From assembly GCF_024323335.1 (NCBI RefSeq), contig NC_066579.1, positions 2,557,001 to 2,621,000 of the forward strand: a stretch of DNA of 64,000 bases, read 5' to 3'. Positions 1 through 25,536 of the stretch are shown here, piece after piece. Position 1 is the stretch's first letter; each line of letters begins with the position of its first letter. Origin of the DNA: Lathyrus oleraceus (Eukaryota > Streptophyta > Magnoliopsida > Fabales > Fabaceae). A program made the position numbers and the translations under genes. The notes beneath the pieces were generated by a model that worked only from the letters and a program-made list of their open reading frames with translations, was not told the origin of the DNA and searched no databases.

Positions 1-747
1 CTTGTGTCTATCAAAAACACAATTGCCTTCAATTAAGGAAGAAAATGATCACATGAATAATATCTCATATGCATCTGCAATAGGATCCATCATGTATGAC
101 ATGTTATGCATTCTACCAGATGTCTCATATACTTTAAGTGAACAAGTAGGTGTTAGTATGATCCTGATGATGCTCATTAGGTTGCTCTCAAGAATATACT
201 TAAGTACTTGAGAAGGAATGAGGACTCATTCTTGATATATGGAGGTCAGGAAGAGATCATTATAATTGGATACATCGATGCTAGCCTTTAGACAAATAAG
301 GATGGATTTTGATTGTAATCTAGTTATGAGTTTTATTTAATTAGGGGTGTTGTTAGGTGGAAAATTTTAAAGTAGGATACACTTACTGATTCTACAACCG
401 AAGTCGAGTATGTTGTCGCCTCAAACACAATAGAGGAAGTTGTTTGGATTACGAATTTCATTAGTGAACTTGAAATAGTCCCAAGAATTGGGAATCACAT
501 TGATCTCTATTGTGAAAATAATGGTTCCATCGCACAAGATAAGAAGCCTATATCTCACCAACAATCCAAGCACATACTTAAGCAATATCACACTATGTCA
601 TAGATAATAGATAAAGGATATGTAAATATATGCAGAGTACCAACACTTAACAATGTGACTAACCCACCGAAAAATCCTCTTGCACAACAAAATCATGAAG
701 GTCATACTAGATCTATGGGTATTAGGTGTATGTATATAGGCCAATAG
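1..747 (+). pseudogene. Ty1/copia pol 3' remnant (RT end and RNase H)
   Basis: Conceptual translation in changing frames gives the typical end of a copia polyprotein: the linker after RT (frame starting at 2), then around 388-600 an RNase H segment beginning DSTTEVEY, with CENN where copia elements normally have CDNN, then a terminal stretch (SMGIRCMY) ending at the TAG at 745-747. Several stops and frame changes make it non-functional. It runs off the left edge, so RT proper, integrase and gag are not visible. Positions 81-386 recur at the start of units 2 and 3, so the left boundary of the tandem array lies inside this remnant. Lineage within copia cannot be fixed from this much sequence. 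Confidence 0.75.
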
Positions 748-2327
748 TTTAATATTAAACTTGGTACTTGTATTGAATCATCTATTAATAATAATAATAA
801 GACATTTCTTTGTTATCTTTGTCTTTCTAAAATAATAAAGTTCACTTAATGAAACATTAAGTGTAACTTAATCATGATATCTCATTAAATATTAGGACAA
901 TATTCTTAAAGTATCTATAGTCGATCTTTATTTTGAAGTGAGATAATATTAAAGCATTGTGACTATTATGTGGATAGATTAATGATTATGTCTCACAAAT
1001 CATGGATAAAGAGTTATCAAGTCTTCACATAGGTATAAATATTATGAGTTATATTTATACTAGATTGTCTCACTGTGAGAATACTACATAGAATGTTATG
1101 CAAGTGTTATAAGTTATTATCAAGGTAATAGTGGTGTATAACACCCTTCGACCTGAATCTACTATGGACCCTATATGTAGAATCGAGAACTTTATCTCCA
1201 GCCAAATGTTTTTTGTAGTAGGAAGACCATAAAGATGATTGATGGGTACTCCACAAATCATGTTGAGGGACATGAGTGACCTAGATGGAATTTTCTAATC
1301 CTCTATACCAGGATAAATATCTAAAGACCTAATATTGAACTAGACAATGGTGACACAGTCTATTCCTTGTGTCCAACATAGACATGAGTAATTATACACA
1401 TAAAAAAATTCATGGGAAGGTTTTGTTCGATCACATGACATTTTCGTGACTTGGGTAGCAACAATGTATTTTTAGATACTGCTCATTGTTTATTATATTA
1501 AATGTGTAATTTGATATAATTGTCAGCGTTACGAGAACCTACGGGGTCACATACATAAGAACAAATTGATGGGAGAAAATAAATAAATGAAGCTTATTCG
1601 AGTGTGCGGTCTCGTAGTGCACTAGAGTTAATTAAAGAAACATGGTACACTATAAGTTTCCAGTCATTCCTGCATACATCTAAACAAATTGGTTAGTTCA
1701 ATCATGGATGAATCAAACTTAGAGAATCTCTTAATTCAATTAGTGATCATATAACATTCTAGTAAAGAATTACTTGATATTATTCCTTATTGAATATTCA
1801 ATCATTAAGATCTCAATGAAACATGTTTGGTTTTGACTTAGATGAGAAGGCTTCCAAAAACAAAAAAATTAGGATCGAAAAGACTTTATATTCTCGACTT
1901 TTAAAGTCACTTAGACTTAATCAAAAGACCATATCTAAGACCACTTATTGGTTAGGAGTATAAGTATGAAAAAGTTCTAGAATGAGGGTTGAATATACTG
2001 ATCCCATTTTAAAACAATTTGAAAACTTTCAATATAAAAATTAGAATTTGGTGAGCGGAAGCAAAAACAACATAAGATGAAAACATAAAATCTCATCATT
2101 ATGGATTCTAAGCAATGTATTTTAAATCTATCACTAAGATAATTATCAAACAATGACTTAAGCCAACTTGGACAATTCAATTTTCTTAATCTAAGCAATT
2201 TAATATCTCAACTTAGACATGTTATTTAACACAATCAACTTAAGCATGATTCAATATGTTTGATGCAACATAAACATATGCTTATATAATAAATCACTAC
2301 AAGCTTGATATAACCTGGATGACATAC
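748..2327. other. Non-coding stretch, probable copia 3' flank or LTR remnant
   Basis: No gene seen; short frames here have no recognisable protein content. It follows directly on the copia pol stop, so part of it (roughly 770-1700) is probably the 3' untranslated region and 3' LTR of that element, but I found no convincing TG...CA boundary or polypurine tract. Positions 387-2327 are missing as a block from units 2 and 3; a shared TAC lies at the deletion edges (384-386 and 2325-2327). Confidence 0.4.
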
Positions 2328-2908
2328 AAATTATTTCATGACTTAACTTCTACGTGCTAAACAAAGAAAATTAAAAAGAGACATGGAAGGAAGAAAGTAC
2401 ATAGAGAATTATAGTGGTTTGGCAACCGACCTCGATATGTTTACTCCACTCTTCAATGTTTTGAAACCATTGGGAACAAATATTCACGTCTTTCACTATT
2501 TTCAAGATTTAATATACACGTATTTTGATACAATGAACTATCTTTAATCTGGATGCTAATAGACATACTATATTATCCTACACATGAATCCAATAACAAT
2601 CCCTTATGTTTATGCAGATACTCAATTGCTACACACAAGATCCTCAATGATATTGATCCAATAATCATGCTATCCACAATAACATGCTCAAAGATTCCTT
2701 TCTATAGTATTCTTCCCTCGATTATGATGAAGAATTATCTGAGCGGTTTCCATTAGCCTCAATTAATTGGATAATTTCTAACTTTGTTCTGCGACAACAT
2801 TCACATGGTTTCACCAAAGTCTTCAATGGAGTAGAAAGACATTATTCTCTCTTTATGAACAACATAAAACCAAAATCCTTATCCATAAAGCGATTCTTCT
2901 GCCTGATA
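2328..2908. other. Unit DNA left of the solo LTR, no gene
   Basis: AT-rich DNA shared by all three units (19448-20028 and 34591-35171). The frame at 2553-2756 has no recognisable motif and is probably chance. The style, with short purine runs and a conserved block around 2405-2470, suggests an old LTR or non-autonomous element, but no termini could be defined. The last five bases, TGATA at 2904-2908, are the left target-site duplication of the solo LTR. Confidence 0.5.
2904..2908. repeat. Target-site duplication, left copy (TGATA)
   Basis: Five-base direct repeat immediately outside the solo LTR; the right copy is at 4881-4885. The intact single copy in units 2 and 3 is the empty site. Confidence 0.95.
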
Positions 2909-4880: not shown

Positions 4881-4885
4881 TGATA
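4881..4885. repeat. Target-site duplication, right copy (TGATA)
   Basis: Second copy of the 5-base target duplication next to the CA end of the solo LTR, identical to 2904-2908. Confidence 0.95.
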
Positions 4886-6644
4886 CACAAAAATATAACT
4901 TCAAAGAAAAACATTAGATTCCACAATGTACTTTTATCTACCTCTCATACTTAATCTTTATAGTAGAAGGTCCACAATAATCGTTTTTGAGACATGTTGA
5001 AGATGATGAATAATATTTGAAGAATCTCACACACACAACTAAAATTCATAAAATCCATATTCTAGAAGGTCAATCACAAGATTTCAACAAGAAATTAGGA
5101 GTTGGTGAACGAAGAACAACTCTAAGTTCTCTCAAGCTTCTTGGAAAAATGGGTTTCAATGTTCTTTGGTGATTGTTCTAAGATTGATAAATTCTATCTC
5201 GATTGATCAAATCCTTTCACTTTCGCTGGGTTTCTTGGTCTTCAACAAGAATACGAGAACACAAGAACACAAGAACACAAGAACAACAATTCATATTCTT
5301 GCTTTTGATTCATGTTTATATCATTTGAGTTAATCTTGAATTTTTATTTTCATTTTCATGAATCATACCAACTTGGAACCTTTTGAACTTAAAATATGTA
5401 TTATCTACAAACTTTAAATATAAAACGATGCATAGTTTTAAGTGCTTAAACCTTATTTAAATATTTTTTGTAGTACTTATGTTTAAGGGCAAACCAAGTC
5501 CTATGTTAAGGTATATTTGTTATGTGCCTAAAATGATTGATTTTCCATAGAATAACCATGACCCTTATTAACTTAAATTGGTAGAAAATATATGGTCTCT
5601 TCTCAATTCTTTTATTTTTGTCGATTAAATCATAAAATGTTAATTTGGATGTATTTCCCTTAAATCAGTCCAAAGTTACACTACTTCCAACATCTCTATG
5701 TAGAAACACAACTACCATTTAAAAGATATCATATATTTCACATATTGGAAAAGCAGAAAGAATATGGAGAGCTATCAAGAGTTGAATAAGAGTTGAGAAG
5801 TTTAAGGAATCATCTTCAACATTAGATATCTTCTCTTTTGATAGGATTATATTTAAGTTAATCATAATCTTGTGTAAACTCTAAATTTGAATTATTTTAT
5901 ATATAGTTTTTTTTTATATATTGATGTTATTATTCTCATTCTTAATGCTTTTGTGACATTAGTTTTCAAAATTGAGTCTTTGATTAGAAAATACTAGAAG
6001 TGAATTTTCTATTTAACGGATCTAGAATAAAATTATATTTAAATGTTAAGTGATAGAAATAAGGTTGAATTTACTGTCACTATATACATCGTATTAAACG
6101 AACAAGGAATAAAAAGTTAATAGATTTACTAGATCTCACATCATTTATATTCAAACTATTAAAACTATATAATTGATTAAGATAATACATTAAAAAGAAG
6201 TTAACTAAAATCTAATTACAATAAAATTTATTTCGATGTTATTTATTTTACATATTTATACTTAGCATCATCTTAATATATAAATAACAACTTATTTTTT
6301 TACTTGAAATAATATATTTTGTTGGAAGGCCCTAATATCACACTAGTTCATGAGGATACAATAACTTTGAATACTTAATATATTGATATTCCTACAAGAA
6401 TATATCATATATTTTAATATGTTGTGGATTAAAAAAGAAATTTTGATATGCTTGAAATATAGACTCAGAAAACACTTTCAAGTTAAGAAATAAGATGTAA
6501 ATATTAGTAATATTCATTGCAACATTATTTCATTTCATTTTCTTTGAAATAGACTACAAAAGTCATAACTGCAAGATTTCTAATATGATAATTCATTCAT
6601 CACTTTAAGATATATTGGATATAATCTTCAAAGAACATGTGGTA
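4886..6644. other. AT-rich unit DNA left of the NCR gene, no other gene seen
   Basis: Present in all three units with only a few differences. It includes a short minisatellite at 5255-5285 (repeats of AAGAACACAA). No credible coding sequence, RNA gene or element terminus was recognised. The part up to about 5400 continues the block interrupted by the solo LTR. Confidence 0.5.
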
Positions 6645-6897
6645 TCATATGCGACATTGACATATGAAATCAACACATCTCATAGCACATCCCGGACCAC
6701 ACATAAGTATGCGACAATCAGAATCAGTAAGACATCCATCAAATGCTGTAATGAAAGATTATTAATTAGTATTGTTAAACAAAGAAATAAAGAAGTAAAT
6801 TTGAAGGAAAAATTAACTTACCCTCAACATTATTTACAACTAGAAATGTGAAAAGAAATAGAAACACAATATAATTAAACTTGAAAATTGCAACCAT
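6645..6897 (-). CDS. Nodule-specific cysteine-rich (NCR) peptide gene, copy 1, two exons
   Basis: Exon 1 is 6822-6897 and exon 2 is 6645-6745, separated by a 76-base intron (6746-6821) with a GTAAGT donor and ACAG acceptor. The spliced frame is 177 bases, giving 58 residues. Residues 1-25 form a hydrophobic signal peptide rich in Phe, Leu and Val. The mature part has Cys at 30, 36, 41, 45, 49, 54 and 56, matching the NCR pattern C-x5-C...C-x4-C-x-C, with a CxTDSDC start typical of the family. The phase-1 intron falls at the signal/mature boundary, as in known NCR genes. In IRLC legumes NCR peptides are secreted into the symbiosome and drive terminal bacteroid differentiation; that role is inferred by family here. 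It has one cysteine more than the six-cysteine class. Mature net charge is near -1 (four Asp, three Arg). No stop or splice defect is visible, so it may be functional. Similarity to a defensin-like peptide is the main alternative. Confidence 0.85.
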
Positions 6898-9293
6898 ATT
6901 TTTCTCTTTTTTTGAATTATGAAATTGAACCAGATCTGGTTACTTTATAATGTGTAAAGCCTTTGTTCTCATAATAAAATTAAAAACAAAACTAAAACTT
7001 AGGGAGTTGTAAGAAACCATTTCCAAAATTAAAATCAATGTTTAATGTCTCTTAAGTAAATCAATATGTTATGTTGCTCCTTAAGCATGTTTAGTAAAGA
7101 GGCCATATAAAATATTATCAAATCATAAGAGTTCATAATTTTTAACCAACTTTTAATTATCTTTTTAGCTCTACATATTACGAAGGTGAAAAGAAATTGT
7201 TGGATCATAGCAAATTTATATGTAGAAATGATGCACCAATGTAATGAAAACATATTTATGTACAACTTCAATATATTGTATGATGGGTATTTCTTCATAA
7301 ATACGTTTAATCAAAGTGAATTTCTATCCAACTTTTAAATTGCATGATTTATTACCATTTTTCATAAATTACAATTCTATAATTTTTATACAAAATTGTT
7401 AGTACAAAAGAGTCATTATAATTTGTTGACATCTTAATTATGCTGGCACTAAACAAACCAAAAACAACCATTTTATGATGAAATAAGAAAAATGAAAATT
7501 GTTTGTGGGCATTTACTAAATATATTTTAGAAATGAAGACAATTTTTTTTACAAAAATGTTTCTAGCGGCCAAGAAGTGTCCACTAATGTCAACATTTTT
7601 TTTTTTTCAAATAAATATTTTTTACCGCAAAAAGTATAATAATATTAAATAATTAAATAAAATATTTAAAAAATTAGAATATATAATTATATAAATATAT
7701 TTAAATTAAGTAAAATAATATTTGTATTTATTAATATATAAAGTAGATTAATAGAAGAAATAATGAAAAAAATTTATATGTTAAAAAATAAGTTAAAAAG
7801 ATAGAGATTAGGGAGAGTAAATGAATGTTGAGAAGGAAAATGATAAATGAATTAAAATTGGAAAACTGATTATTTATTTTATTTTCTAACTAGATAAATA
7901 CCCGAACTTTTGCATGGGTTTGCGGTAGATAATGTTATTATGTTACTCTTAATAAATAATATATTTTTCTTTAAAAAGTAAAATTATATATATTGAACCC
8001 GTAATTTTTATTATGTTTAAATAAAAACTATTTGTCCCATATATATATTTTTAAATTATTGATGAGAAATATGTGTATGTAATTTTGTATATATTAAACA
8101 ATAATAAATATGTGTTATATATTTTACTTTGATGGATATAGAGTTGCGTGGAGTTTTTAAATTATGCAATTTTGAAGAGAACTTACTCCTTTGATGCTTA
8201 CATTGTCAATTGCCTATCTGATTACTTTATTCTCTAGGGGAGAGTAATATGACACTTGATTCCATCAACTCCATGACTAAGTTTTCTCTAACTTTGTTGA
8301 CTGTCGGATATTCTTAGTCTTTGACTTGATTCTTCCCAAACACTAGAAATTCCTTCCTTTCTCATTGCGTAAATCTGAGTTCAAATGAGTTGCATAACTT
8401 CTTAGAGTTCTCGAGTTCCACCTTAACGTATTCGTAAGTTCACTTAGTTTCATGACTCTACTTCACTCGATTTATGTTTAACGACTGATCATTTTCTGCA
8501 TTTCACGGTGTACCGTCCTACAAATTCGAGTTTATTATTGTGTCATTGATACATTGTCTCCTAAACTATTCCTTGATGTTGTGGTAGAGCCCAACTTTCA
8601 GTTTGATCCCAACCTATCGGTTCTCACTTGAACCATTATTGATTAATCATGCCTATTCAACTGGCTTATTATCTTCATAAATAATAATGCAATCATTCCA
8701 TCACTACTTTTATTACTAGTTAAGTGAGGAAATTTTAAACCTGGGTCATATGACTATCATATAAATCCTAAGCATTCTTGGTCGATTCTAAACTTGTTTC
8801 TCTCCCCTCGGAGTTCCCTATTCTAGATTACCTCAAGTTGAATGCTCATAATGTGGAGTTTTCATTGTATAAATATTGAACATACAATACACTTGTTGGT
8901 GTATGCTATAAGAGTCTATCCTCATAACCTACCACCTGCCTCGCAATCCTATACATATATGGCCTCAAGATTCCTCATGTCTCACTGAAGGGTTAACTAA
9001 CATATTCATTCTCTTTGGCTAGAAGTTGGGTTAGTAGTACCTGCTTTCCATACTCACACTCCAGCTGTTACTACCTTCCTTAACTCATCATTGGAGTCAT
9101 ATTTTTTTCCATAGTCCGTTAATACATCTTTTCAACTAATTTCGACGCATCTTAATCGCATGTTGTGGGTTAGCCTCTTTGCATATTTACCTAAAGATTA
9201 TTGTAATAGGTCTAAAGTCCAACTTTAGGTAACTTATCATTATAACCTTACAAAATTCAAATCCAATGTAACTGCTTCACATTTAACTCTCGG
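6898..9293. other. AT-rich unit DNA right of the NCR gene, no other gene seen
   Basis: It holds the NCR upstream region, then very AT-rich low-complexity DNA (about 7600-7890), then a more balanced 1.1-kb stretch (8160-9293) with no open frames. The minus-strand frames at 7035-7298 and 7352-7573 have no recognisable motif and biased AT-rich composition. A sequence at about 7893-7930, with ACCC and GGGT flanking TTTTGCAT, vaguely resembles a helitron end, but this is not enough to call one. Confidence 0.45.
6930..6950 (-). promoter_or_regulatory. Putative NCR core promoter: TATA-like box and CCAGATCTGG palindrome
   Basis: On the minus strand TTATAAAG (6943-6950) lies about 46 bases before the NCR start codon, leaving room for a short leader. 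A perfect 10-base palindrome, CCAGATCTGG (6930-6939), sits between it and the start. Both are kept in units 2 and 3. The assignment rests on position and sequence only. Confidence 0.5.
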
Positions 9294-10035
9294 TGTAACA
9301 CCTCAAAATTTGATTAATTTAATTAATCAAATTATTTATGTTTTTATTTAATTAATTAGTATGTGATGTGCTTTTAATTAAAAACACATATTGAGTTGTA
9401 TGTGCATGTGGTGTATGGTGGGGTGTAGGTAGAGCCTTGGTGGGTAGAATAATTAATTAATTAGAAATTATTGGAATTGATAATTATTTTAATTAATTAA
9501 TTAAAATAAATAAGAAAAGAGGTTTTTGGATGGAAAATATAAATTTAGAGGAAATAAGAGAAGTGGTGAACATTTTAAAAAGAGTTGAGCCTTAGTGTAA
9601 TTAACAAAAGAGTAAATTAAGTTTTTAGAGATAAAAAAGGGTTAGCGTGACTTTTGAGGAGCCAGTACATACAATTGAAGTTGTGAGAGAAAATGAGGCT
9701 AGGGCTTGAAGAGGGAATAATATCAACCATTGATCTCAATCAATTCAGAAATTTTGCAAGGAATTTGAGGTAAGGGAGGAGAAATGACTTATATATGAGG
9801 CTTTAGCATGAAATGGTAGAGAAGAGAGACCCTTACTCTCATTAGGGATTGTGTAAATTCTGTTTTGTTATGTTGTTATTGTTGTATGATTTTTATGTTC
9901 TATTGAGTGATCTGTGTTCATTCTTGTATTTTGATTTGATACCTATGTTGATGCCTTTAATAAGGCAATGTTAGTATGATAATCCCGTTGATGCCTTTTG
10001 ATAAGGAAATGCTAATGTGATTTCTAGCTCTACCA
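9294..10035 (+). mobile_element. Truncated LTR-like sequence starting TGTAACACC
   Basis: It starts with TGTAACACCTCAAAATTTG, a start common to plant gypsy LTRs, and continues in LTR-like non-coding DNA with an AT-rich first third and a G/A-rich middle (about 9640-9790). Near the right end two imperfect repeats each begin GTTGATGCCTTT (about 9949 and 9987). No matching CA end or target duplication is visible before the Ogre fragment begins at about 10036, so it is truncated. The family is unknown. Confidence 0.4.
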
Positions 10036-10394
10036 AGGAGTTTTGAAAATTGGAACAATCACATTCACGTAATCATCCAAATTTCTAGCTTGGTGGATAT
10101 GAATCATACCTTCATCCATTAAGATTTGAACATCCCTTTTCACAATCACGCATGTACGTGGATTGACACTACAAATGATACAACTGTCATGATCATGCTC
10201 GCACTCACTGATCTGACACAAAGTCTTGTGAAGCTCTACCAAGGATCTTCAGATATGTCGAACATCACAAACTCTGTATTCACCGGGACAACCATCCACC
10301 ATATTTACAGAGGAGGTACCATGAGAGGGTAACAAATTGGCTTTAACATTTGGCGCACGGTCCTTAAAAGTACCATCCCACTTCTTACCAACCT
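10030..10394 (-). pseudogene. Ogre post-gag linker toward protease, broken
   Basis: The minus-strand frame at 10030-10242 contains ELHKTLCQISECEHDHDSC and VNVIVPIFKTP, typical of the segment between gag and protease in legume Ogre-like polyproteins. Between it and the gag stop at 10395 the translation needs a frame change and one stop to be followed. Element sequence ends right after FKTP, at the junction near 10036. The bases AGCTCTACCAAGGA occur both at this junction (10025-10038) and 209 bases inside (10234-10247). Confidence 0.7.
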
Positions 10395-11888
10395 TTAGAA
10401 CTCGTATTTCAATGGATAATAGTTCTCAATATCATGGCCTGATGCCCCTTGATGATAGACACAATGCTGACCAGGCTTATACCACGACGACATAGGTTCA
10501 AGCATAAGTGAAAGACTTCTTGGCTGAACTAGATTCTTGACAATTAGAGACAAATATAATTCGGCATAGGACATCAGAATAGGGTCAAACGTGACATTCT
10601 TCCTCTCATAGTTGTTGTGCTTATTATTGTTGTGATTGTTATTATGATGATTGTTCTTATGAGTATGTTGTTGTTGTTGTTGAGGTTGGATTGTTGATGA
10701 TTGAACGTCATAATTATTGGCAAACACAGGAACAACAGAAGACACTCGATGATCATGCTGATGAGATTTGGAACTCTTCTTCACATAAGGCTTCCTTTTC
10801 CTCTCCACAGTCACTGAATTAGTTTCTCCATCCTTCTTTTTCGAGAAACCACTCCCATACTTCTTATTGGTTGATGCTTCTTCTCTAGACAATCTGCCCT
10901 CACAGACACCTTCCTCTAGACGCATCCCCATGTTCACCATCTCGGTGAAATCATTGAGAGAACTAGCAATCATACACTCATAGTAAAATGAACTCAAAGT
11001 CTTGAGAAATATCTTTGTCATTTCTTTTTCTTCCAACAAAGGACTGATCTGAGCAGCTAGCTCTCTCCATCTCTGCGTATATTCTTTAAATGTCTCTTTG
11101 TCTCTCTGAGACATAGACCGAAGTTGGTCATGATCATGCACCATATCCAAATTGTATTTATACTGCTTAATAAAGGCCTCACCTAAGCCATTGAAAGTAG
11201 GAATGCTACCATTGTCCAGATCCATGTACCAACGAAGAGCGGCACCGATCAAGCTATCTTGGAAATAATGAATGAGCAACTGGTCGTTGTCTGTTTGGGT
11301 TGACATCTCACGAGCATACATCACAAGATGACTTATAGGACAAGTGTTCCCTTTGTATTTCTCAAAGTCAGGGACCTTGAACTTAATAGGAATCTTCACA
11401 TTAGGCACCAAGCAGAGCTCAGAAGCGCTCTTCCCAAACAAATCTTTTCCCCTCAGAGTCTTCATTTCCTTCTTCAGTTCTTGAAACTGATCCTTCATTT
11501 CATCCATATTTTCATACATATTTGGGCCTTTAGACGGCTCATCATGGTACATAGTCTCTTAAACACGAGGCATGACATGCATAACAAGAGGATGAGTAGA
11601 CATGATCTGGCGAGATGCCGACATAGGAGCAATGGTAGGAGCATAACCCTTAGGAACATGGTTTTGAGGCATTCCCCAAGGGAATCCAGTAGGCATAGAG
11701 TGCGCAGGCTGGTTGACTAAAGCCACAAACACGAGCGTTGAGGTAGTCTTGGAGATAACTGTCCGTTGTTGCAGAGTTGTAGGAGTCAGAGCCGCTTGAC
11801 TCTGAGCTGTGATGATAGACTCCTTAAAAGTAGTACGTCTAGCAATCTCTTTTTTGCGCTCACAGTTTTCTTTCTCCAATTGATCCAT
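10395..11888 (-). pseudogene. Ogre-type gag, split by an in-frame stop
   Basis: The start ATG is at 11888 (MDQLEKEN, a short coiled-coil-like start). The frame is interrupted by TAA at 11559-11561 and then continues to a second stop at 10395-10397. The downstream 385-residue part contains the retrotransposon gag core (capsid-like helices around DNDQLLIHYFQDSLIGAALRW and the KEYTQRWRELAAQI block), then a basic, His/Asn/Gln-rich linker and a zinc-knuckle-like CVYHQGASGHDIENYY, where the last position is Tyr rather than Cys. In a working element gag would form virus-like particles. The same stop before MYHDEP is present in all four units, so gag was already dead before the segment was multiplied. 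Confidence 0.85.
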
Positions 11889-12209
11889 CTTGCATTGATG
11901 ATTAACACGGGTGTTGTACTAATTCATCAGCTTAACTGATACAAAGATGAAGATCATGAGACACCTAACCGAAGGGCTAGAATGCAAGAAACCTGCGATG
12001 CAAATGATGAATGAATGCAATATTTTTGATTTTATTATTTTCAAGTAACATACAAAGTCTTATTTGTAAATATTTCAACAATAATAATCAATAATAACAA
12101 TTTGAATTGACCATAAAGTCTCATTTTTATTCATAATATTTGGAAGGATTACACTGAGTATAATTTCAGAAACCAAAATACAAATACAAGAGAAAAGGAA
12201 AATAGCATT

Positions 12210-13717
12210 CTAAGGATCCCTAACAACTATATCAGATGAACTGGCTATGGGCATGTACTTCCTTCGAATGTGTCTGATCTCGGACTCGTAGGCGGTCTTC
12301 ATATGAGCTTTCTCGGCGACGAGCTGATCGACGATCTTCTTCCAAGCACCAGAAAACTGAGGGATACTAGAGGAAAATAAATCATCTGGCCCTCTCTCTC
12401 TCTCTTAACTGCACGACCTTCGAGGATCTCAATGAGTGCATCCTTGTCTTTCATCTCAAGTTGTAACTCCACTTGCTTTCGATTCAAAACATGGAACCGT
12501 TCTTCCCAAAGGCCCTTCTCTTGATTCATCTTAGCTAGTGCATCTTCCAACTCCTCTACGTCTTGGTTAGGGAGAGTTGATGGATCAACCACAACCATAG
12601 ACATAGGTCTTTCATAAGCATACGACATCTTAAGCTCTAAGGCTCTCTTATTCACCCAACAAGTGTAAGGTTCCAAAGCTACGCAATTGCACGGCCCAAG
12701 CTCGGCTCTTCCCCTCCTATGGACACTATGCCAAGCACGCACCATCCTACCCTTCATGTTTTGGGGATCTTTACCCTCTTGATAGAATAGACCTTTTAAC
12801 TGAACATTATTAGGTTTATCCTTAAAGGGGAATCCAAGTTGACGGCGAGCCATAGCAGGATTGTAATTGATTCCTCCTTGTGTACCAATGAGAGACACAT
12901 TAGAGAATTCACCACAATTATCAATAATCTTTAAGCCATAGTTTACATAATTATACCAAGTAATATCATCATTACTGAGAGACGTAAGTCTCTGGGACCA
13001 CCGTAGACATTGCTTGTTCTCTAAGAAGACTGGTATCTGAGGTAAGTGCAAAATAAACCACTTGTACAGAAGAGGTACGCAACACACAATGGTTCCACTA
13101 CCCTTAGAATTCCTTAGATGTGGAGAGAAGTACATGTCACCCAACAAAGTTGGAACATGATTCCCAATCAAGAAGATTCTAATGGCATTAACATCAACAA
13201 AGTTGTCAATGTTAGGGAACAATGCTAGACCATAGATAAACAATAAGAAGATAGCCTCAAAGGTGTCCGTACTACCAACTTGAGCAAAAGAGGTAGCTCT
13301 TCCAATCAGAAACTCAGAAGTCAGACCTCAGATACCTCCTTTCTTCTTCATACTTGCATCAATCTCATACTTCTTCAAATGAAGAGCATCGGCTATGACT
13401 TGAGATTTTAGAATCTCCTATAATCCACTAAAAGTCACCCTATCAGATACGGGTATACCCAAGAGATAGACATACTCCTCTAACATAGGCATAAGCTGAT
13501 AATCAGGAAAGGCGAAGCATCGGTAGAGAGGATCATAGAACTGAACCAACACACTCAAGAATCCTTCAACAACCTCGGTACACAACACATACAAAAGCTT
13601 CCCATGATGTTCTTTAAAATCCAAGGGATCAACTACAAATGATGCTAGCTTCCTTAACTCTTTCAAATCTGGACATCTGAAACCGTATTTCTTAGTGTTC
13701 CTTCGTCCATAATCCAT
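12210..13717 (-). pseudogene. Ogre ORF1 (DUF7745-like), broken
   Basis: It starts at ATG 13717 (MDYGRRNTKKYGF). About 502 codons can be followed to a stop at 12210-12212, comparable to the 445-residue intact ORF1 at 50590-51927. Breaks: TAG at 13415-13417; TGA at 13328-13330, where units 3 and 4 have CGA (Arg); and a two-base frame shift at the CT run 12390-12405, which encodes an Arg-Glu-type repeat and is two bases shorter in unit 4. The C-terminal third is a coiled coil (EELEDALAKMNQEKGLWEER). ORF1 lies upstream of gag in Ogre elements; its function is unknown. Confidence 0.8.
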
Positions 13718-14173
13718 GGTCTCAAAATATTTGCAAACACGACCTTAGTTCCTTTAAATTTATTTTTGTGATGAATGTTATGATGTGCATGTATGCATAA
13801 ATGCAACAATCATACACAAGGGATCACACACAAGTCAAACACAAACAAAGGTCAAGGGATGAATCAAGTCATCGCCATCAATAATCCATTTTGGTGGATT
13901 AGGATTTTCACCCCATCAACACCCAAGATCCATTTATATTGATGGTAACTGATCGAATCAACCAAGAATCAATGGGTTTGTTGTGAGTCACGAGTATGGA
14001 GTCGGGTTAAAAACCATCCCAAAGGAGTGTACTAAGGATAAAAACATGTAGAGCATGTTCGAAAAAGTTCCCAGAGTCATGATCCCATCTATCAGATACT
14101 ATAGGTTTAGATGACTGACTCATCAACCCATAGTATTCTCAAGAGAAACTCGTTTGAGTGTAGTATCGCGTAA
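13718..14173 (-). other. Ogre leader (5' untranslated) remnant
   Basis: Non-coding sequence upstream of ORF1. It shares the GAGTGTAGTATCG block with the leader of the second Ogre element (near 52253), which supports the assignment. The leader is cut at 14173/14174 where plus-strand Athila RT sequence begins, so no primer site or LTR is present. Confidence 0.7.
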
Positions 14174-16161
14174 ACGAACCTAATTCTGAATTGGGCGAAA
14201 TGTCATTTCATGGTGCGCGGGGGGATAGTTTTGGGGCACAAAATTTCGTATAAAGGAATTCAAGTGGACCAAGCGAAAATGGAAGTGATCTCTAAACTCC
14301 CACCCCCTGTGAATGAGAAGGGTATCAGGAATTTCTTAGGACACGCAGGTTTTTACCGTTGGTTTATAAGAGATTTCTCAAAAATTGTTAAACCGCTAAC
14401 CACTATGTTGGTTAAAGATAAGGTGTTTCTGTTCAACAAAGAATGCACCATGGCATTTGAGACATTGAAAAGCAAGTGGATTTATGCACCTATTATTATT
14501 GCCCCAAAATGGTCTCTACCATTTAAGATCATGTGTGATGCTAGTGATATTGCGGTAGGGGCAGTTTTAGGACAACGAAGAGAGAAGTTGTTACATGTCA
14601 TCTACTATGCGAGTCATGTGTTAAACCTAGCACATATGAACTACGCAACCACGGAAAAAGAATTGTTGGTCGTGGTTTACGCGTTTAACAAGTTCAGGCA
14701 GTATCTGTTGGGATCAAAGGTTATAGTGTATACGTATCATGCCGCTTTGAAATATTTGTTTGCTAAGCAAGACTCTAAGCCGAGACTCCTCAGGTGGATC
14801 TTACTCCTATAAGAATTTGATGTTGATATCCGAGACAAAAGAGGGTGTGAAAATACAGTGGCAGACCATTTATCCCGCATGTCACCTATTGAAGAAATAG
14901 AAGAAAAGAGACTGATAAAGGATGAATTCGCTGATGAACACATACTAGCTGTCATTAATATCCCGTGGTTCGCGGACTACGCGAATTATTTAGTGGGGGG
15001 TGTAATCCCCAACGATTTTGATTCTAACAAAAAGAAAAAGTTTGTTCATGATTGCAGGTTCTACTTGTGGGATGACCCATTCCTTTACAAAAGAGGAGTG
15101 GATGGGCTGATCAGAAGATGTATCCCAGAGGAGGAGCAAAGGGATGTACTTAGAGCTTGTCATGATTCAGAATACGGAGGACATTTCAGTGGAGACCAAA
15201 CAACAACCAAAGTTCTTTAATCAGGTCTATATTGGCCTACTCTATTCAAAGATGCCTAGGACATAGTCAAAGAATGTGACAGATGTCAAAGAACAGGGAA
15301 TATTTCAAAGAGAAATAAAATGCCGCAAAATGCTATGCTGGAGGTTGAATTGTTTGATGTCTGGGGAATAGACTTTATGGGGCCATTCCCACTATTCTGT
15401 GGAAAAAGTTATATCTTGATAGCAGTTGACTATGTATCCATGTGGGTAGAAGCTGTAGCATTACCCTCCAATGATGCTAAAGTGGTGGTGACATTTTTGA
15501 AAAACAATATCTTTTCTAGATTTGGAGTGCCAAGATCACTTATCAGTCATGGAGGCACCCACTTTTTGAACAAATTAATGGAAAACCTGCTGAAGAAGTA
15601 TAATGTTAAACACAAGATCGTCACTCTGTGTCACCCTCAAACGAATGGCCAGGTCGAAGTATCCAATAGGCAGATTAAGCAAATATTGGAAAAGACTGTG
15701 TGCGCATCTAGGAAGGATTGGGCACTAAAGTTAGAAGATGCACTATGGGCATACAGAACAACCTTCAAAACACCCATAGGGATGTCCCCATATCAGTTGT
15801 TTTATAGTAAAGCTTGTCACTTGCCATTAGAGTTTGAGCACAAAGCATTTTGGGCATCCAAATTCTTGAATTATGACCTGGTTAAAGTAGGTGAGTCCCG
15901 CATCCTTCAGCTCTATGAGTTAGAGGAATTTCGTAATCAAGCGTATGAAAATGCTAAGATGTACAAAGAACGGATAAATAAATGGCACGACCAGAATCTG
16001 CAGAGAAAAGAGTTTGTCGAGGGACAGTTAGTGCTCTTGTTCAACTCCAGACTAAAGCTTTTTCCAGGAAAGTTGAAATCTAGCTGAATGGACAACGGTT
16101 GAAGCACTACTATCAGGGACAGGAAAGTGGTCTGATTGAGAATGTTCGTCTCCAAGGATGA
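14174..16161 (+). pseudogene. Athila-type Ty3/gypsy pol 3' part (RT end, RNase H, integrase), broken
   Basis: Domains in order: end of RT and connection (14174 to about 14450; [23 protein letters not shown]), RNase H (about 14510-14830; CDAS and TEKELL present), integrase zinc-binding region (about 15140-15300; CHDSEYGGH, CDRCQ), and integrase core (15320-16087). Inactivating changes: a Tyr codon at 14735-14737 (VYTYHAAL) where the RNase H Asp is expected; a His codon at 15548-15550 (SHGGTHF) where the second catalytic Asp of integrase is expected; and stops at about 14810, 15218 and 15260. A short deletion after 16081 is followed by the conserved end (NGQRLKHYYQG...) to the stop at 16159-16161. 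The 5' part is missing; the break is at the fusion with the Ogre leader. Confidence 0.85.
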
Positions 16162-16906
16162 GGGTGACGACTGTCGAGCCATGCGACGTTAAACGCAACG
16201 CTTCGTGGGAGGGAACCCACGCGGTTTATCTAACTATTTTCATGTTTGGTATGTCTACAGGTTCACTCGTAGGTTCGCGGTTGCATCGCGCAGTTCAGAA
16301 GAGAAAGGTTGATTAAGATGGTCGGACACCGGAAGAACAGTGAAAAATCTGAAAACAGAAAGGAAAAAAAGTCGGAAAATTTTGAAAAAACAGGGCCCTA
16401 ACACGGGCGCCCGTGTCAGGAAAGGAATCAAAATCACTTTTTTTACAGTAGGTTGACATGGCCGCCTGTGTCAGCTGACACGGCCCGTGTCATCCCTACT
16501 GAGCCACGTCTCCAATTACAGTGGCTTGACAAGGCCGCCCGTGTCAGCTGACACGTCCCGTGTCAGGCCCAACGACCATATTTTTCAATTTTTTTTTTGT
16601 GTTTTGTGGGCCCCAACCAAAATTTTCACCACTTAAACACATTTTATCCATTATCTACCAATAAATTCTATTTTTTCTTACTCTCTCTCTTTCATTACCT
16701 CATTATCTTTCTCCTTCCTCACACTTTCTCCACATTCCTTAATTACCTAACTCACTTAAAGCTCCAAGCTTTACCGCCATTTCCAGTCCAATGTGTCGAC
16801 ACCCTTCACGAAAGTTGTTATACTCGCCACCCTCTACAAAGCTACGGTAATCTTTTTCCGTTTTCCTTAAATTTTTGGGTGATGATTTGTATTTCAAGAA
16901 ACAAAA
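16162..16906 (+). other. Athila spacer between pol and env-like frame, with GC-rich palindromes
   Basis: No coding sequence. It contains the purine-rich pol trailer and then perfect palindromes ACACGGGCGCCCGTGT (16402-16417), GTGTCAGCTGACAC (16468-16481) and CGTGTCAGCTGACACG (16540-16555) in an otherwise GC-richer 180-base block, followed by a pyrimidine-rich stretch (about 16680-16740). Apparent frames here are chance. Confidence 0.65.
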
Positions 16907-18184
16907 ATGCCGCCAAAAAGCATCTCCAAAGGGAAGCAAGCAGACGCGAAATCATCCCGTCCAAGGAAACGGACAATCCGTCATCCAAATTCACATGACA
17001 TAATTTTTGATAACCCGAAGCATGAACGGAGGTACGCATCTCATGTCAAACGGAAAATCACTCCGACCAGGTACCTTTGCTCCGATACTCTTTTTCAATT
17101 AGGCATGTCTGAAGAACTGGATAGGATGTTTCATGTGCTTGGAATGCTGGAGTTTTTCCATTGTGAAGCGGCAACCTTTGAGCGCATCACATTAGAATTT
17201 CTGAGCACAATTGAGTTCAAGCTCAAAAAGGGTTGGAAGGGTACAACTATGTACTTTGGAGGAACAATGTCTTTCAGGTTGTACAATGTCGACCATGAGT
17301 TAACGGTGGAGCAGTTGGGCAAAATTCTTCGCCTACCCCTTTATGGCCCCGAAGCCGTACCAGACATCTTTGATGCTAAGACGTTCTGGTTGGCCATTAC
17401 GAGACGCTCCGACTATGTCGCTAAAGGAGTAAAGGCGTCGGGCATTCAAAACCCCTGTTTCAGGTATGCCCAGAAGGTGTCAGCCTTCACACTATTTGGC
17501 AGGGGTGACAGTACAGGTGTAGCCACCCAGAGAGAGCTGTTCTTTTTGTTTGCCATGGCAAACCGGGTAGCTGTGAGTGTTGCAGCATTTGCTGCAGATT
17601 ATCTGGGTCGTGTGGGGAGAGCAGCCCAAGGAGGAATCTCCATAGGAGGCATCATCACTCAGATTGCCCAACATTTCAAATATGATCCGGCTGCACTCAA
17701 TGAGACATCAGTAGCAGGTAAGAGCAAACTGGACATGAACGCATTGGTCCATCAAGGTAGGATTTCACAAGTTTCTGATTATTATGCCTTAATGAGTTCG
17801 GGTCAGTTTATTATGGCTCTACCTAACTCAGCACGAATTAGCATCTAAAACACGGCCAATTGGCTTTATGAAAGTGCCATCCAAGATGATATGGACGAGC
17901 ACAATGCTGATACATTTGCTGCAGGTGACCCACAGGAGGAAGAAGTACAGGAAGAGATGCAGGATCAAAAGCAATTTGCTGCCCCACCAGAAGAATCCAT
18001 GCACCCCGGTGCCGGTTCATCATATGTGACGCCGGACCAATGGTCATGGATGCAAACAGAAATTGGTGATCTCTGAGCGGAGCAAGCACGCCAAGGTGTA
18101 GAGCAGGCCCGTCAAGGGACTCTGATGGATGAGATGCATGCGATGATGCAACGTCTGATGTTGCAATTTCCGCCGCCACAGTGA
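16907..18184 (+). pseudogene. Athila ORF1-family / env-like frame, two internal stops
   Basis: ATG at 16907 opens 313 residues to TAA at 17846-17848; the same frame then continues through a TGA at about 18074 to a final TGA at 18182-18184, about 425 codons in all. The start is basic (KRKITPTRY, nuclear-localisation-like). The middle resembles the ATHILA ORF-1 family found downstream of pol in Athila/Calypso elements, there described as env-like. The end is acidic and Gln-rich (DPQEEEVQEEMQDQ). I see no clear signal peptide or transmembrane helix, so envelope function is not supported by the sequence. The stops make it a pseudogene. Confidence 0.7.
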
Positions 18185-19124
18185 GCCGATTTGAGCCCCT
18201 CTCTATCTTGGATGAAAACATTATGGACAATGTTTAGTTCAAGTGTGGGGAGGTTTTGATTATTTATTGCTTTTGTTATTTGTTTTGTTCTTAATATTTT
18301 TGTTTAATTAAGTTGTGTGTTACTCTATGTGTTACAGATAAAGGACATTCGTGTCGGATGAACGATGAAGCTTGGAACGATTGGATGGAAGACACACCCC
18401 TCTACTTGCTCTTCTGGAAACCCCCAAAGGTTGATGCCACCGACTCGAAAAATCGGACGTGACTCTCTGTCACTGGATTTTGTAGTGATACTCCACAACT
18501 GAAGAGAAGGCGAAGCTACATCACACTGAGAGACATCTTGGAAGCCTGAAAGCTAGACAAAACATGGTGAGAACTACAAAAAGCCAAACACTTATCATCA
18601 TGAGAGTTGTTCTGGTATGTCTTTGTCTCTCTGGGTTTGCATTAGAGATACTGAAATTGCATAGCACACGATACACACTGAGGCATTGTTTTTGTATTTT
18701 AACCCTAAGCCTTTCAAGCCAACCCGTCATAATTACCCTTCGTTCACCAATTTTGAGCCATATTTCCTTTTGTTTTTATTTTCACCATTGTATATAGCCA
18801 TAAGCCCATACACTACCACACCCTGCTTAGACAAGTGTTGTTTACCCTGAAGCTACCGAAAAGATTAAGTTTGGGGTTTCATCCAAATTTAGGGACACCG
18901 ACAAACCTTAGATAAGTGCAAAAAGATGAAGAAAAAAAATTCAGAGAAAAAGAAGAGAAAGAAAAAAGAAGAAGTCATGAAGCACTTATCTAGAAAGACT
19001 ATGGTTGGCAATGCATCAAAAGAGCAATAAAAGAAAATATATGCGCCAATGAACCTAAAAAAAATGGTGTCCAAAAGAAATACCCCTGAGTTTTAAATTT
19101 GAACAACGGTACAAGGGTAACAAG
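18185..19124 (+). other. Athila 3' untranslated remnant, LTR missing
   Basis: Contains AAGTGTGGGGAGG at 18241-18253 and AAGTTTGGGGTTTC at 18867-18880, both typical of Athila 3' regions (polypurine-tract-like), and a purine-rich run (about 18920-18975). The 3' LTR that should follow is absent; sequence passes straight into the copia remnant of unit 2 at 19125. The small frames at 18521-18797 are not credible genes. Confidence 0.6.
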
Positions 19125-19158
19125 TAGGATCCATCATGTAATAGGATCCATCATGTAT
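19125..19158. repeat. 17-base tandem duplication at the unit 1/unit 2 junction
   Basis: TAGGATCCATCATGTAA occurs twice in a row here but once in unit 1 (81-97, followed by T rather than A at the last base). The left copy abuts the end of the Athila 3' remnant. The same arrangement stands at 34268-34301. Confidence 0.9.
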
Positions 19159-19447
19159 GGCATGTTATGCATTCTACCAGATGTCTCATATACTTTAAGT
19201 GAACAAGTAGGTGTTAGTATGATCCTGCTGATGCTCATTAGGTTGTTCTCAAGAATATACTTAAGTAGTTGAGAAGGAATGGGGACTCATTCTTGATATA
19301 TGGAGGTTAGGAAGAGGCTATTATAATTGGATACATCGATGCTAGCCTCTAGACAAATAAGGATGGATTTTGATTGTAATCTAGTTATGAGTTTTATTTA
19401 ATTGGGGGTGTTGTTATGTGGAAAATTTCAAAGTAGGATACACTTAC
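19125..19447 (+). pseudogene. Copia RNase H remnant, unit 2 copy (internally truncated)
   Basis: Corresponds to 81-386 of unit 1 with about 2-3% differences. It then jumps, at a shared TAC, to the sequence matching 2328. Only the linker before RNase H is left, so it codes for nothing. Confidence 0.75.
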
Positions 19448-21787
19448 AAATTATTTCATGACTTAACTTCTACGTGTTAAACAAAGAAAATTAAAAAGAG
19501 ACATGGAAGGAAGAAAGTACATAGAGAATTATAGTGGTTCGGCAACCGATCTCGATATGTCTACTCCACTCTTCAATGTTTTGAAACCATTGGGAACAAA
19601 TATTCACGTCTTTCACTATTTTCAAGATTTAATATACACGTATTTTGATACAATGAACTATCTTTAATCTGGATGCTAATAGACATACTATATTATCCTA
19701 CACATGAATCCAATGACAATCCCTTATGTTTATGCAGATACTCAATTGCTACACACAAGATCCTCAATAATCTTGATCCAATAATCATGCTATCCACAAT
19801 AACATGCTCAAAGATTCCTTTCTATAGTATTCTTCCCTCGATTATGATGAAGAATTGTCTGAGCGATTTTCATTAGCCTCAATTAATTGGATAATTTCTA
19901 ACTTCGTTCTGCGACAACATTCACAAGGTTTCACCAAAGTCTTCAATGGAGTAGAAAGACATTATTCTCTCTTTATGAACAACATAAAATCAAAATCCTT
20001 ATCCACAAAGCGATTCTTCCGCCTGATACACAAAAATATAACTTCAAAGAAAAACATTAGATTCCACAATGTACTTTTATCTACCTCTCATACTTAATAT
20101 TTATAGTAGAAGGTCCACAATAATCGTTTTTGACACATGTTGAAGATCATGATTAATATTCGAAGAATCTCACACACACAACTAGAATTCATAAGATCCA
20201 TATTCTAGAAGGTCAATCACAAGATTTCAACAAGAAATTAGGAGTTGGTGTACGAAGAACAACTCTAAGTTCTCTCAAGCTTTTTGGAAAAAATGGGTTT
20301 CAATGTTCTTTGGTGATTGTTCTAAGATTGATAAATTCTATCTCGATTGATCAAATCCTTTCACTTTCGCTGGGTTTCTTGGTCTTCAACAAGAATACGA
20401 GAACACAAGAACACAAGAACACAAGAACAACAATTCATATTCTTGCTTTTGATTCATGTTTATATCATTTGAGTTAATCTTGAATTTTTATTTTCATTTT
20501 CATGAATCATACCAACTTGGAACCTTTTGAACTTAAAATATGTATTATCTACAAACTTTAAATATAAAACGATGCATAGTTTTAAGTGCTTAAACCTTAT
20601 TTAAATATTTTTTGTAGTACTTATGTTTAAGGGCAAACCAAGTCCTATGTTAAGGTATATTTGTTATGTGCCTAAAATGATTGATTTTCCATAGAATAAC
20701 CATGACCCTTATTAACTTAAATTGGTAGAAAATATATGGTCTCTTCTCAATTCTTTTATTTTTGTCGATTAAATCATAAAATGTTAATTTGGATGTATTT
20801 CCCTTAAATCAGTCCAAAGTTACACTACTTCCAACATCACTATGTAGAAACACAACTACCATTTAAAAGATATCATATATTTCACATATTGGAAAAGCAG
20901 AAAGAATATGGAGAGCTATCAAGAGTTGAATAAGAGTTGAGAAGTTTAAGGAATCATCTTCAACATTAGATATCTTCTCTTTTGATAGGATTATATTTAA
21001 GTTAATCATAATCTTGTGTAAACTCTAAATTTGAATTATTTTATATATAGTTTTTTTTATATATTGATGTTATTATTCTCATTCTTAATGCTTTTGTGAC
21101 ATTAGTTTTCAAAATTGAGTCTTTGATTAGAAAATACTAGAAGTGAATTTTCTATTTAACGGATCTAGAATAAAATTATATTTAAATGTTAAGTGATAGA
21201 AATAAGGTTGAATTTACTGTCACTATATACATCGTATTAAACGAACAAGGAATGAAAAGTTAATAGATTTACTAGATCTCACATCATTTATATTCAAACT
21301 ATTAAAACTATATAATTGATTAAGATAATACATTAAAAAGAAGTTAACTAAAATTTAATTACAATAAAATTTATTTCGATGTTATTTATTTTACATATTT
21401 ATACTTAGCATCATCTTAATATATAAATAACAACTTATTTTTTTACTTGAAATAATATATTTTGTTGGAAGGCCCTAATATCACACTAGTTCATGAGGAT
21501 ACAATAACTTTGAATACTTAATATATTGATATTCCTACAAGAATATATCATATATTTTAATATGTTGTGGATTAAAAAAGAAATTTTGATATGCTTGAAA
21601 TATAGACTCAGAAAACACTTTCAAGTTAAGAAATAAGATGTAAATATTAGTAATATTCATTGCAACATTATTTCATTTCATTTTCTTTGAAATAGACTAC
21701 AAAAGTCATAACTGCAAGATTTCTAATATGATAATTCATTCATCACTTTAAGATATATTGGATATAATCTTCAAAGAACATGTGGTA
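19448..21787. other. AT-rich unit DNA left of NCR copy 2; empty solo-LTR site
   Basis: Matches 2328-2908 plus 4886-6644 without the solo LTR. The single TGATA at 20024-20028 is the empty target site. No gene recognised; the frames at 19673-20097 are conserved only because the whole segment is duplicated. Confidence 0.6.
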
Positions 21788-22040
21788 TCATATGCGACAT
21801 TGACATATGAAATCAACACATCTCATAGCACATCCCGGACCACACATAAGTATGCGACAATCAGAATCAGTAAGACATCCATCAAATGCTGTAATGAAAG
21901 ATTATTAATTAGTATTGTTAAACAAAGAAATAAAGAAGTAAATTTGAAGGAAAAATTAACTTACCCTCAACATTATTTACAACTAGAAATGTGAAAAGAA
22001 ATAGAAACACAATATAATTAAACTTGAAAATTGCAACCAT
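21788..22040 (-). CDS. NCR peptide gene, copy 2, two exons
   Basis: Exon 1 is 21965-22040 and exon 2 is 21788-21888, with a 76-base intron between. Both exons are identical to copy 1, so the predicted 58-residue secreted peptide with seven cysteines is identical. The base just before the start codon differs (C for T on the coding strand), and one base at about 22145 upstream differs. The TATA-like box and palindrome are intact. Function as for copy 1: a predicted symbiosome peptide, inferred from family pattern and gene structure. Confidence 0.85.
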
Positions 22041-24434: not shown

Positions 24435-25177
24435 TGTAACACCTCAAAATTTGATTAATTTAATTAATCAAATTATTTATGTTTTTATTTAATTAATTAG
24501 TATGTGATGTGCTTTTAATTAAAAACACATATTGAGTTGTATGTGCATGTGGTGTATGGTGGGGTGTAGGTAGAGCCTTGGTGGGTAGAATAATTAATTA
24601 ATTAGAAATTATTGGAATTGATAATTATTTTTAATTAATTAATTAAAATAAATAAGAAAAGAGGTTTTTGGATGGAAAATATAAATTTAGAGGAAATAAG
24701 AGAAGTGGTGAACATTTTAAAAAGAGTTGAGCCTTAGTGTAATTAACAAAAGAGTAAATTAAGTTTTTAGAGATAAAAAAGGGTTAGCGTGACTTTTGAG
24801 GAGCCAGTACATACAATTGAAGTTGTGAGAGAAAATGAGGCTAGGGCTTGAAGAGGGAATAATATCAACCATTGATCTCAATCAATTCAGAAATTTTGCA
24901 AGGAATTTGAGGTAAGGGAGGAGAAATGACTTATATATGAGGCTTTAGCATGAAATGGTAGAGAAGAGAGACCCTTACTCTCATTAGGGATTGTGTAAAT
25001 TCTGTTTTGTTATGTTGTTATTGTTGTATGATTTTTATGTTCTATTGAGTGATCTGTGTTCATTCTTGTATTTTGATTTGATACCTATGTTGATGCCTTT
25101 AATAAGGCAATGTTAGTATGATAATCCCGTTGATGCCTTTTGATAAGGAAATGCTAATGTGATTTCTAGCTCTACCA
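24435..25177 (+). mobile_element. Truncated LTR-like sequence, unit 2 copy
   Basis: Near-identical to 9294-10035 (one base longer in a T run). Same TGTAACACCTC start and same cut-off at the Ogre fragment. Confidence 0.4.
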
Positions 25178-25536
25178 AGGAGTTTTGAAAATTGGAACAA
25201 TCACATTCACGTAATCATCCAAATTTCTAGCTTGGTGGATATGAATCATACCTTCATCCATTAAGATTTGAACATCCCTTTTCACAATCACGCATGTACG
25301 TGGATTGACACTACAAATGATACAACTGTCATGATCATGCTCGCACTCACTGATCTGACACAAAGTCTTGTGAAGCTCTACCAAGGATCTTCAGATATGT
25401 CGAACATCACAAACTCTGTATTCACCGGGACAACCATCCACCATATTTACAGAGGAGGTACCATGAGAGGGTAACAAATTGGCTTTAACATTTGGCGCAC
25501 GGTCCTTAAAAGTACCATCCCACTTCTTACCAACCT
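25172..25536 (-). pseudogene. Ogre post-gag linker, unit 2 copy, broken
   Basis: Same as 10030-10394, including the stop after the FKTP motif and the frame changes toward gag. Confidence 0.7.

What the first reader, a model, noticed from the sequence alone, without database searches (positions are those of the whole stretch)
6645..6897. Unannotated two-exon NCR peptide gene, identical in three tandem units
Seen: on the minus strand a signal-peptide exon, a 76-base intron with GTAAGT/ACAG borders, and a cysteine-rich exon give a 58-residue peptide in the NCR pattern. The same exons, base for base, recur at 21788-22040 and 36931-37183. Established: NCR genes in IRLC legumes have this structure and control bacteroid differentiation. 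Inference: a retroelement-rich segment has carried an NCR gene through tandem amplification, raising its dosage. Frame finders miss it because each exon is too short.
Basis: partly seen in the sequence, partly recalled or inferred. Interest (0 to 1): 0.88.

Follow-up and report, generated by a model that had tools for sequence, protein, structure and literature searches.

The report
Tandem NCR peptide gene, probably pea
This looks like a real but ordinary member of the large family of nodule peptides with which pea-like legumes control their nitrogen-fixing bacteria, found in three identical copies apparently because a 15-kb stretch of chromosome was recently duplicated in tandem.

Summary
Observation confirmed: the 253-bp gene is identical at 6645-6897, 21788-22040 and 36931-37183. 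The spliced 58-residue product matches Pfam Nodulin_late (52.7 bits, cut-off 30.4). Its promoter carries two published NCR motifs far above chance. Two diverged relatives 1.1-1.3 Mb away keep the exon structure, promoter and all seven cysteines. It is very probably a true NCR gene, in a 3.795-Gb genome that fits pea (inferred). A genome search found no further exact copy. The gene's identity is unremarkable for units this alike (P about 0.28) and says nothing about selection. The middle unit is like unit 3 on its left and unit 1 on its right: the footprint of an unequal crossover, or of an assembly error that I cannot exclude. Retroelement sequence fills part of the unit, but nothing shows that it carried the gene. 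NCR duplication in transposon-rich clusters is already published for pea. Expression, annotation status and dosage were not testable. New member of a known kind.

The parts
6822..6897 (-). NCR gene copy 1, exon 1 (signal-peptide part, 25 codons plus 1 base)
6746..6821 (-). NCR gene copy 1, 76-base intron, GTAAGT...TACAG
6645..6745 (-). NCR gene copy 1, exon 2 (mature peptide, seven cysteines, stop)
6898..7387 (-). Promoter stretch alignable to the relative L014 (about 490 bases; 430 bases to L013), about 70% identity
7014..7054 (-). Published NCR promoter motif 4, 38 of 41 positions (-157 to -117)
   Evidence: motif from PMC3613412
7056..7095 (-). Published NCR promoter motif 1 with one base missing, 35 of 40 positions (-198 to -159)
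6918..6967 (-). Match to NCR promoter motif 3, 40 of 50, holding TATAAAG (-70 to -21); best place in the window, but the score is within the simulated range
7151..7191 (-). Match to NCR promoter motif 2, 33 of 41 (-294 to -254); second-best place in the window after 52716-52756, score within the simulated range
21788..22040 (-). NCR gene copy 2 (exon 2 21788-21888, intron 21889-21964, exon 1 21965-22040)
36931..37183 (-). NCR gene copy 3 (exon 2 36931-37031, intron 37032-37107, exon 1 37108-37183)
4881..20023 (.). Tandem unit 1, 15,143 bases
20024..35166 (.). Tandem unit 2, 15,143 bases; unit-3-like left part, unit-1-like right part
35167..47596 (.). Tandem unit 3, cut off at unit position 12,540
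23419..23821 (.). Stretch of unit 2 in which, by substitutions, it changes from unit-3-like to unit-1-like (proposed crossover)
69..386 (.). Tail of a unit left of unit 1 (unit 14,249-14,567), 95.0%
2322..2903 (.). Tail of a unit left of unit 1 (unit 14,562-15,143), 97.3%
19124..19157 (.). Unit-to-unit junction; TAGGATCCATCATGTA stands twice here, once at the left edge of the array
55559..59630 (.). Diverged copy of the unit's retroelement part (unit 5,490-9,557); continues beyond the window to unit 14,243; no NCR gene found in it

Best explanation
A genuine nodule-specific cysteine-rich (NCR) peptide gene, in tandem copies. By family knowledge (inferred for this gene) it is transcribed in infected nodule cells from its NCR-type promoter, spliced, secreted through the signal-peptide route to the symbiosome, and acts on bacteroids; the mature peptide is slightly acidic (calculated pI 4.6), so a modulating role is likelier than a membrane-killing one. 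The copies arose by tandem duplication of a 15-kb stretch made of an AT-rich half with the NCR gene and a half rich in retroelement frames. An old founding duplication (about 3-6% divergence) was followed by loss of the NCR half of the last unit. A recent unequal crossover between two units about 1% apart then made the hybrid middle unit and the third identical gene. Shown: gene anatomy, profile match, two promoter motifs, conserved cysteines, copy count in the assembly as far as the search reaches, the mosaic. Inferred: host, expression, function, dosage, the order of events, and that the assembly has the right number of units.
For: Pfam Nodulin_late 52.7 bits, E 5.3e-14, profile positions 1-54 of 54. 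Six of the seven cysteines align without gaps to Medicago NCR13, PDB 7th8, though at E 0.51 only. Promoter motif 4 scores 32.8 against a best of 12.0 in 200 simulated 4.55-kb sequences, and its three best places on either strand of the window are the three gene promoters; motif 1 with one missing base scores 26.8 against a best of 11.0 in 100 shuffled promoters. Relatives L013 and L014 keep the structure and 7 of 7 cysteines; dN/dS to the window gene 0.42 and 0.67. Mosaic: unit 2 equals unit 3 at 16 of 16 informative substitutions up to unit position 3,396 and equals unit 1 at 92 of 96 from 3,798 on. As the crossover model predicts, the two inner unit tails are identical, 0 differences in 895 sites.
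Against: No RNA evidence. Motif 1 without the gap is not found; motifs 2 and 3 score inside the simulated range; motif 5 has no convincing site near the gene. dN/dS rests on 32-34 synonymous sites; for L013-L014 exon 2 alone it is 1.92. Unit 2 has only two private substitutions, so an assembly expansion is possible. The genome-wide family search did not show the window gene among its listed rows: 150 of 1070 candidates were scored, the list was cut, and exons are matched singly.
Confidence: 0.87

Rival explanations
1. The middle unit is an assembly artefact: two real units (1 and 3) were joined through a false extra copy made of unit 3's left and unit 1's right part. The gene is real but there are two copies.
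For: Outside the exchange zone unit 2 differs from its two sources by only 2 + 4 substitutions and 4 + 7 gaps in about 13.9 kb, many of the gaps being single bases in runs of A or T. If the genome is PeaZW6, it was assembled by Canu from PacBio reads and corrected with Pilon; 15-kb near-identical repeats are hard for that (judgement).
Against: Unit 2 has two private substitutions, and right of the exchange unit 1 differs at four sites where units 2 and 3 agree, unlike a pure copy. PeaZW6 was also scaffolded with an optical map. Another NCR triple with about 12-kb spacing stands on the same chromosome, so such arrays recur, or such errors do.
Confidence: 0.22
2. A retroelement captured the NCR gene and carried it.
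For: Unit 1 contains frames with Retrotrans_gag, DUF7745, RT_RNaseH, rve and ATHILA matches.
Against: The gene keeps its intron. A search with 7400-9300, upstream of the gene, gave 43 matches with 40 of 56 candidates scored: three in full (the units) and 40 partial ones at 67-85% identity. No exact copy of the gene was found elsewhere.
Confidence: 0.04
3. A decayed NCR gene passively multiplied with its surroundings.
For: No expression data; the tandem copies are too young to show constraint among themselves.
Against: Open frame, splice sites and two promoter motifs intact; seven cysteines kept in two relatives at 53-66% exon-2 identity; dN/dS below 1 over the whole gene in three of three pairs (0.42, 0.67, 0.74).
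Confidence: 0.07

Closest known systems
NCR (nodule-specific cysteine-rich) peptides, Pfam PF07127 Nodulin_late; 360 expressed genes in pea cv. Frisson (PMC9515463: abstract, part 1 of 3 of the Results, sections 19 and 22, found passages seen)
   Same: Two exons with signal peptide and mature peptide apart, cysteine-rich product, clustered relatives, acidic class (43% of pea NCRs in that paper are anionic)
   Different: Seven cysteines, where that paper sorts pea NCRs by four or six conserved ones; whether this gene is among the 360 could not be checked
Medicago NCR13 (PDB 7th8, 8ulm)
   Same: Six cysteines at C-x5-C-x4-C-x7-C-x4-C-x1-C, aligned without gaps
   Different: An additional cysteine in the x7 loop; weak as a sequence match (E 0.51)
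Medicago NCR promoters with five long motifs (PMC3613412, passages seen)
   Same: Motif 4 strongly, motif 1 strongly with one base missing, within 200 bases upstream of the ATG
   Different: Motifs 2 and 3 weak, motif 5 not convincingly found

Membership tests
NCR peptide (Nodulin_late) | Match to the late nodulin profile above the curated cut-off | tested here: met
   52.7 bits against 30.4
NCR peptide (Nodulin_late) | Signal-peptide exon, intron, mature-peptide exon | tested here: met
   By sequence only, no transcript; same phase and split codon in two relatives
NCR peptide (Nodulin_late) | N-terminal secretion signal | tested here: inconclusive
   Hydrophobic stretch reaching 2.79 on the Kyte-Doolittle scale and covered by the profile; SignalP could not be run
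NCR peptide (Nodulin_late) | Four or six cysteines in conserved positions | tested here: met
   Six at NCR13 spacing plus a seventh that both relatives share
NCR peptide (Nodulin_late) | NCR-type promoter motifs | tested here: met
   Motif 4, and motif 1 with a gap, far above controls; 2 and 3 in place but not above the simulated range; 5 not convincing
NCR peptide (Nodulin_late) | Host in the IRLC legumes | tested here: inconclusive
NCR peptide (Nodulin_late) | Expression confined to nodules | not testable with these tools
   no RNA data
NCR peptide (Nodulin_late) | Action on bacteroids | not testable with these tools
   needs the peptide and the plant
Retroelement-carried gene | Dispersed copies, or intron loss | tested here: not met
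   Intron kept; exact gene found only in the array
Retroelement-carried gene | Gene inside the borders of one element | not tested
   Complete element borders in the unit were not mapped

The most novel reading that the evidence does not exclude
The gene belongs to a small conserved seven-cysteine branch of the NCR family (C-x5-C-x2/4-C-G-P-x-C-x3-C-x4-C-x1-C) in which the extra cysteine of the CGPxC loop stays unpaired and gives a free thiol or a disulfide-linked dimer, a chemistry unlike that of four- and six-cysteine NCRs; and the newest copy, some 15 to 45 thousand years old, still varies in number among pea lines and changes which rhizobia they accept.
Probability: 0.12. Interest if true: 0.55.

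Novelty: new member of a known kind. Interest (0 to 1): 0.3.

Why it matters
It is a readable case of how an NCR family grows: an apparent recent crossover between two older units, bracketed to about 400 bases, beside an older unit without its NCR half. It predicts copy-number variation among pea lines and points to a conserved seven-cysteine NCR branch. It does not change what is understood of NCR evolution.

Tried and rejected
A search of about 5.8 billion predicted proteins found nothing; a spliced plant product may well be missing from such predictions, so I count this neither way. tRNA (whole window) and Rfam (bases 4000-20100) scans gave nothing. The single-sequence model of the 33-residue mature part (mean pLDDT 79.5, pTM 0.42) shows a hairpin near the C-terminus, but the PDB fold search gave one match, at E 5.1, of no value. 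Comparing the window promoter by BLAST with 20 other NCR upstream regions gave a best score of 44.6 bits against at most 40.1 in 100 simulated queries, a thin margin; the published motifs were the better test. A regular expression over 30 other NCR loci and L051 found two exons with six cysteines and none with seven; it is narrow and does not measure how common seven are. Literature: 'NCR peptides' with 'odd number of cysteine' gave no paper; 'nodule-specific cysteine-rich' with 'unequal crossing' gave one, on nitrate reductase, seen in the listing only. Against the copy-number idea: in 15 Medicago genomes NCRs were less often accession-specific than core (23.8% against 34.1%) and less variable than several other families (PMC5369179, passages). 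On promoters, PMC4168050 (passages) says that the role of the five motifs, if any, needs further study.

Full report
Observation. The 253 bases at 6645-6897, 21788-22040 and 36931-37183 are identical. Read on the minus strand they give exon 1, a 76-base intron with GTAAGT and TACAG borders, and exon 2; the joined product is MVAIFKFNYIVFLFLFTFLVVNNVEAFDGCLTDSDCRILMCGPGCAMRCVDFICQCRI. It has seven cysteines; the part from residue 27 has calculated pI 4.58 and charge -1.3 at pH 7. The cleavage site is assumed, not computed.

Is it an NCR gene. The product matches Pfam PF07127 Nodulin_late over profile positions 1-54 of 54 with 52.7 bits, cut-off 30.4; it is the only family reported up to E 10. 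Among PDB sequences the only match up to E 10 is Medicago NCR13, at E 0.51; the ungapped alignment pairs six of the seven cysteines with those of NCR13. The profile match is the evidence; NCR13 only shows the spacing.

Host. The published pea assembly PeaZW6 has 3,796.7 Mb, seven pseudomolecules and 1,572 unplaced contigs (PMC9534762, passages). Pea is my inference; the contig numbers do not agree exactly. A search with PF07127 gave 170 matches at E up to 1, with 150 of 1070 candidates scored, and none in the 14 control genomes. The window gene was not among the rows listed.

Promoter. Five motifs of 41-50 bases were reported as confined to upstream regions of Medicago NCR genes; their authors' deletion tests suggest that the 400 bases with the motifs may be required but do not suffice (PMC3613412, passages). 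Motif 4 fits the window promoter at 38 of 41 positions, -157 to -117, score 32.8; the best of 200 simulated 4.55-kb sequences was 12.0, and the next score in the window is 2.6. Motif 1, allowing one missing base, fits at 35 of 40 positions at -198, score 26.8, against at most 11.0 in 100 shuffled promoters. For motif 3 the three promoters are the best places in the window and for motif 2 the second best, but simulated sequences reached higher scores (11.1 against 17.2; 11.4 against 17.6). The best sites for motif 5 lie about 800 bases upstream and are weak (6.5 against 19.6). In the relatives motif 4 scores 25 (L013) and 17 (L014) at the same distance.

Relatives. The genome search with the gene found six places: the three copies, C1:1433924 (71%), C1:1302905 (68%) and C3:123668503 (query bases 1-116, 74%). 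The two on C1 have the same exon structure, the same split codon and seven of seven cysteines, with 66% and 52% identity in exon 2. Homology covers the gene and about 490 (L014) or 430 (L013) bases upstream, about 70% identical, and stops near the end of the coding sequence. dN/dS over the gene is 0.42, 0.67 and 0.74 for the three pairs, with 32-34 synonymous sites each; exon 2 of L013 against L014 alone gives 1.92 on two synonymous differences. I read this as constraint on the scaffold, weak in numbers. A protein search with exon 2 gave the same five places and one weak one (C5:535712679, E 0.59).

The array. Units of 15,143 bases run 4881-20023, 20024-35166 and 35167-47596, the third cut off. 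I scanned nine of the 22 reading frames of 150 or more residues; the five from unit 1 gave Retrotrans_gag, DUF7745, RT_RNaseH, rve and ATHILA matches, all in the right part of the unit. Left of unit 1 stand two pieces of a unit tail (69-386, 2322-2903), separated from each other and from unit 1 by inserts; the second insert, 2909-4880, begins TG and ends CA between copies of TGATA, like an LTR insertion. To the right, 55559-59630 and, beyond the window, positions 67895-72589 carry unit 5,490-14,243 without the NCR half; no other cysteine pattern was found in the window plus 30 kb on each side. That copy ends at unit position 14,243, next to the unit-to-unit junction, where the left fragment begins (14,249); so I take it as the last unit of the array, not an independent element (inference). 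At the junction TAGGATCCATCATGTA stands twice, which suggests that the founding duplication was a non-homologous join. The left edge reads like a copia reverse-transcriptase motif; that is recalled and was not tested.

How the third copy arose. At sites where units 1 and 3 differ by substitution, unit 2 agrees with unit 3 at 16 of 16 up to unit position 3,396 and with unit 1 at 92 of 96 from 3,798 on (sums of the bins listed there; one further site, 8,170, where unit 2 has a gap is left out). Past the exchange, small indels at 3,919, 10,020, 11,790 and 11,991 also put unit 2 with unit 3. This is what an unequal crossover between units 1 and 3 would leave, with some later change in unit 1; it also predicts identical inner tails, found at 0 differences in 895 sites. 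Gene conversion, or a false extra unit in the assembly, would look alike. Divergence: founding copies 2.8-5.6%, units 1 and 3 1.1% on the right and 0.45% on the left, unit 2 from its two sources 0.04-0.06%. With rates of 1.3e-8 and 6.5e-9 per site and year (recalled), the last step is about 15-45 thousand years old and the first about 1-4 million; these are rough.

Meaning of identity. With 18 variable sites in 3,600 bases, a 253-base gene without any difference has P about 0.28. The identity reflects youth, not selection or dosage.

Against carriage by a retroelement. The gene has its intron, and a search with 7400-9300 gave 43 matches, 40 of 56 candidates being scored; only the three units match in full, the other 40 are partial and 67-85% identical. 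Complete element borders in the unit were not mapped.

What is known. For pea, 360 expressed NCR genes were described, mostly two-exon, 43% anionic (PMC9515463, part 1 of 3 of the Results), in clusters (section 19). The same paper says that the clusters contain many repeats and transposons and that repeats apparently facilitate unequal recombination that duplicates NCR genes (found passage). Another triple at C1:14924422, 14936509 and 14948579, whose sampled 2-kb pieces are 99.4-99.6% alike, shows a similar pattern in this genome.

Verdict. A very probable NCR gene in a tandem array of which at least two units are clearly distinct and the third is likely: a new member of a known kind. The unusual points are the conserved seventh cysteine and the readable crossover.

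Noticed in passing
L052, L053, L054 (three 2-kb samples of C1:14923501-14949650): A second set of three Nodulin_late matches at 12,087- and 12,070-base spacing with 99.4-99.6% alike surroundings, apparently another young tandem NCR array.
   Followed up: partly
L013:2426-2762: A second promoter-like stretch, 71-74% alike to the NCR promoters, about 2.2 kb upstream of the gene at 4924 and without a matching NCR exon in the comparison.
   Followed up: no
2904-4885: An insert of 1,972 bases, TGTAACACCC...GGGTGCTACA, between 5-base repeats TGATA: looks like a lone long terminal repeat; the matching sites at units 1/2 and 2/3 are empty.
   Followed up: partly
387-2321: Another insert of about 1.9 kb in the left unit tail, whose ends show no clear target-site duplication.
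   Followed up: no
59631-64000 (to position 67899 beyond the window): A copia-type element (gag frame) with terminal repeats 98.2% identical, inserted in the diverged last copy.
   Followed up: partly
C1:455435721-456851744 of G000: Nine listed Nodulin_late matches, eight of them covering profile positions 11-54 or 12-54 with a TAA in the frame, possibly another local expansion of exon-2 sequences.
   Followed up: no
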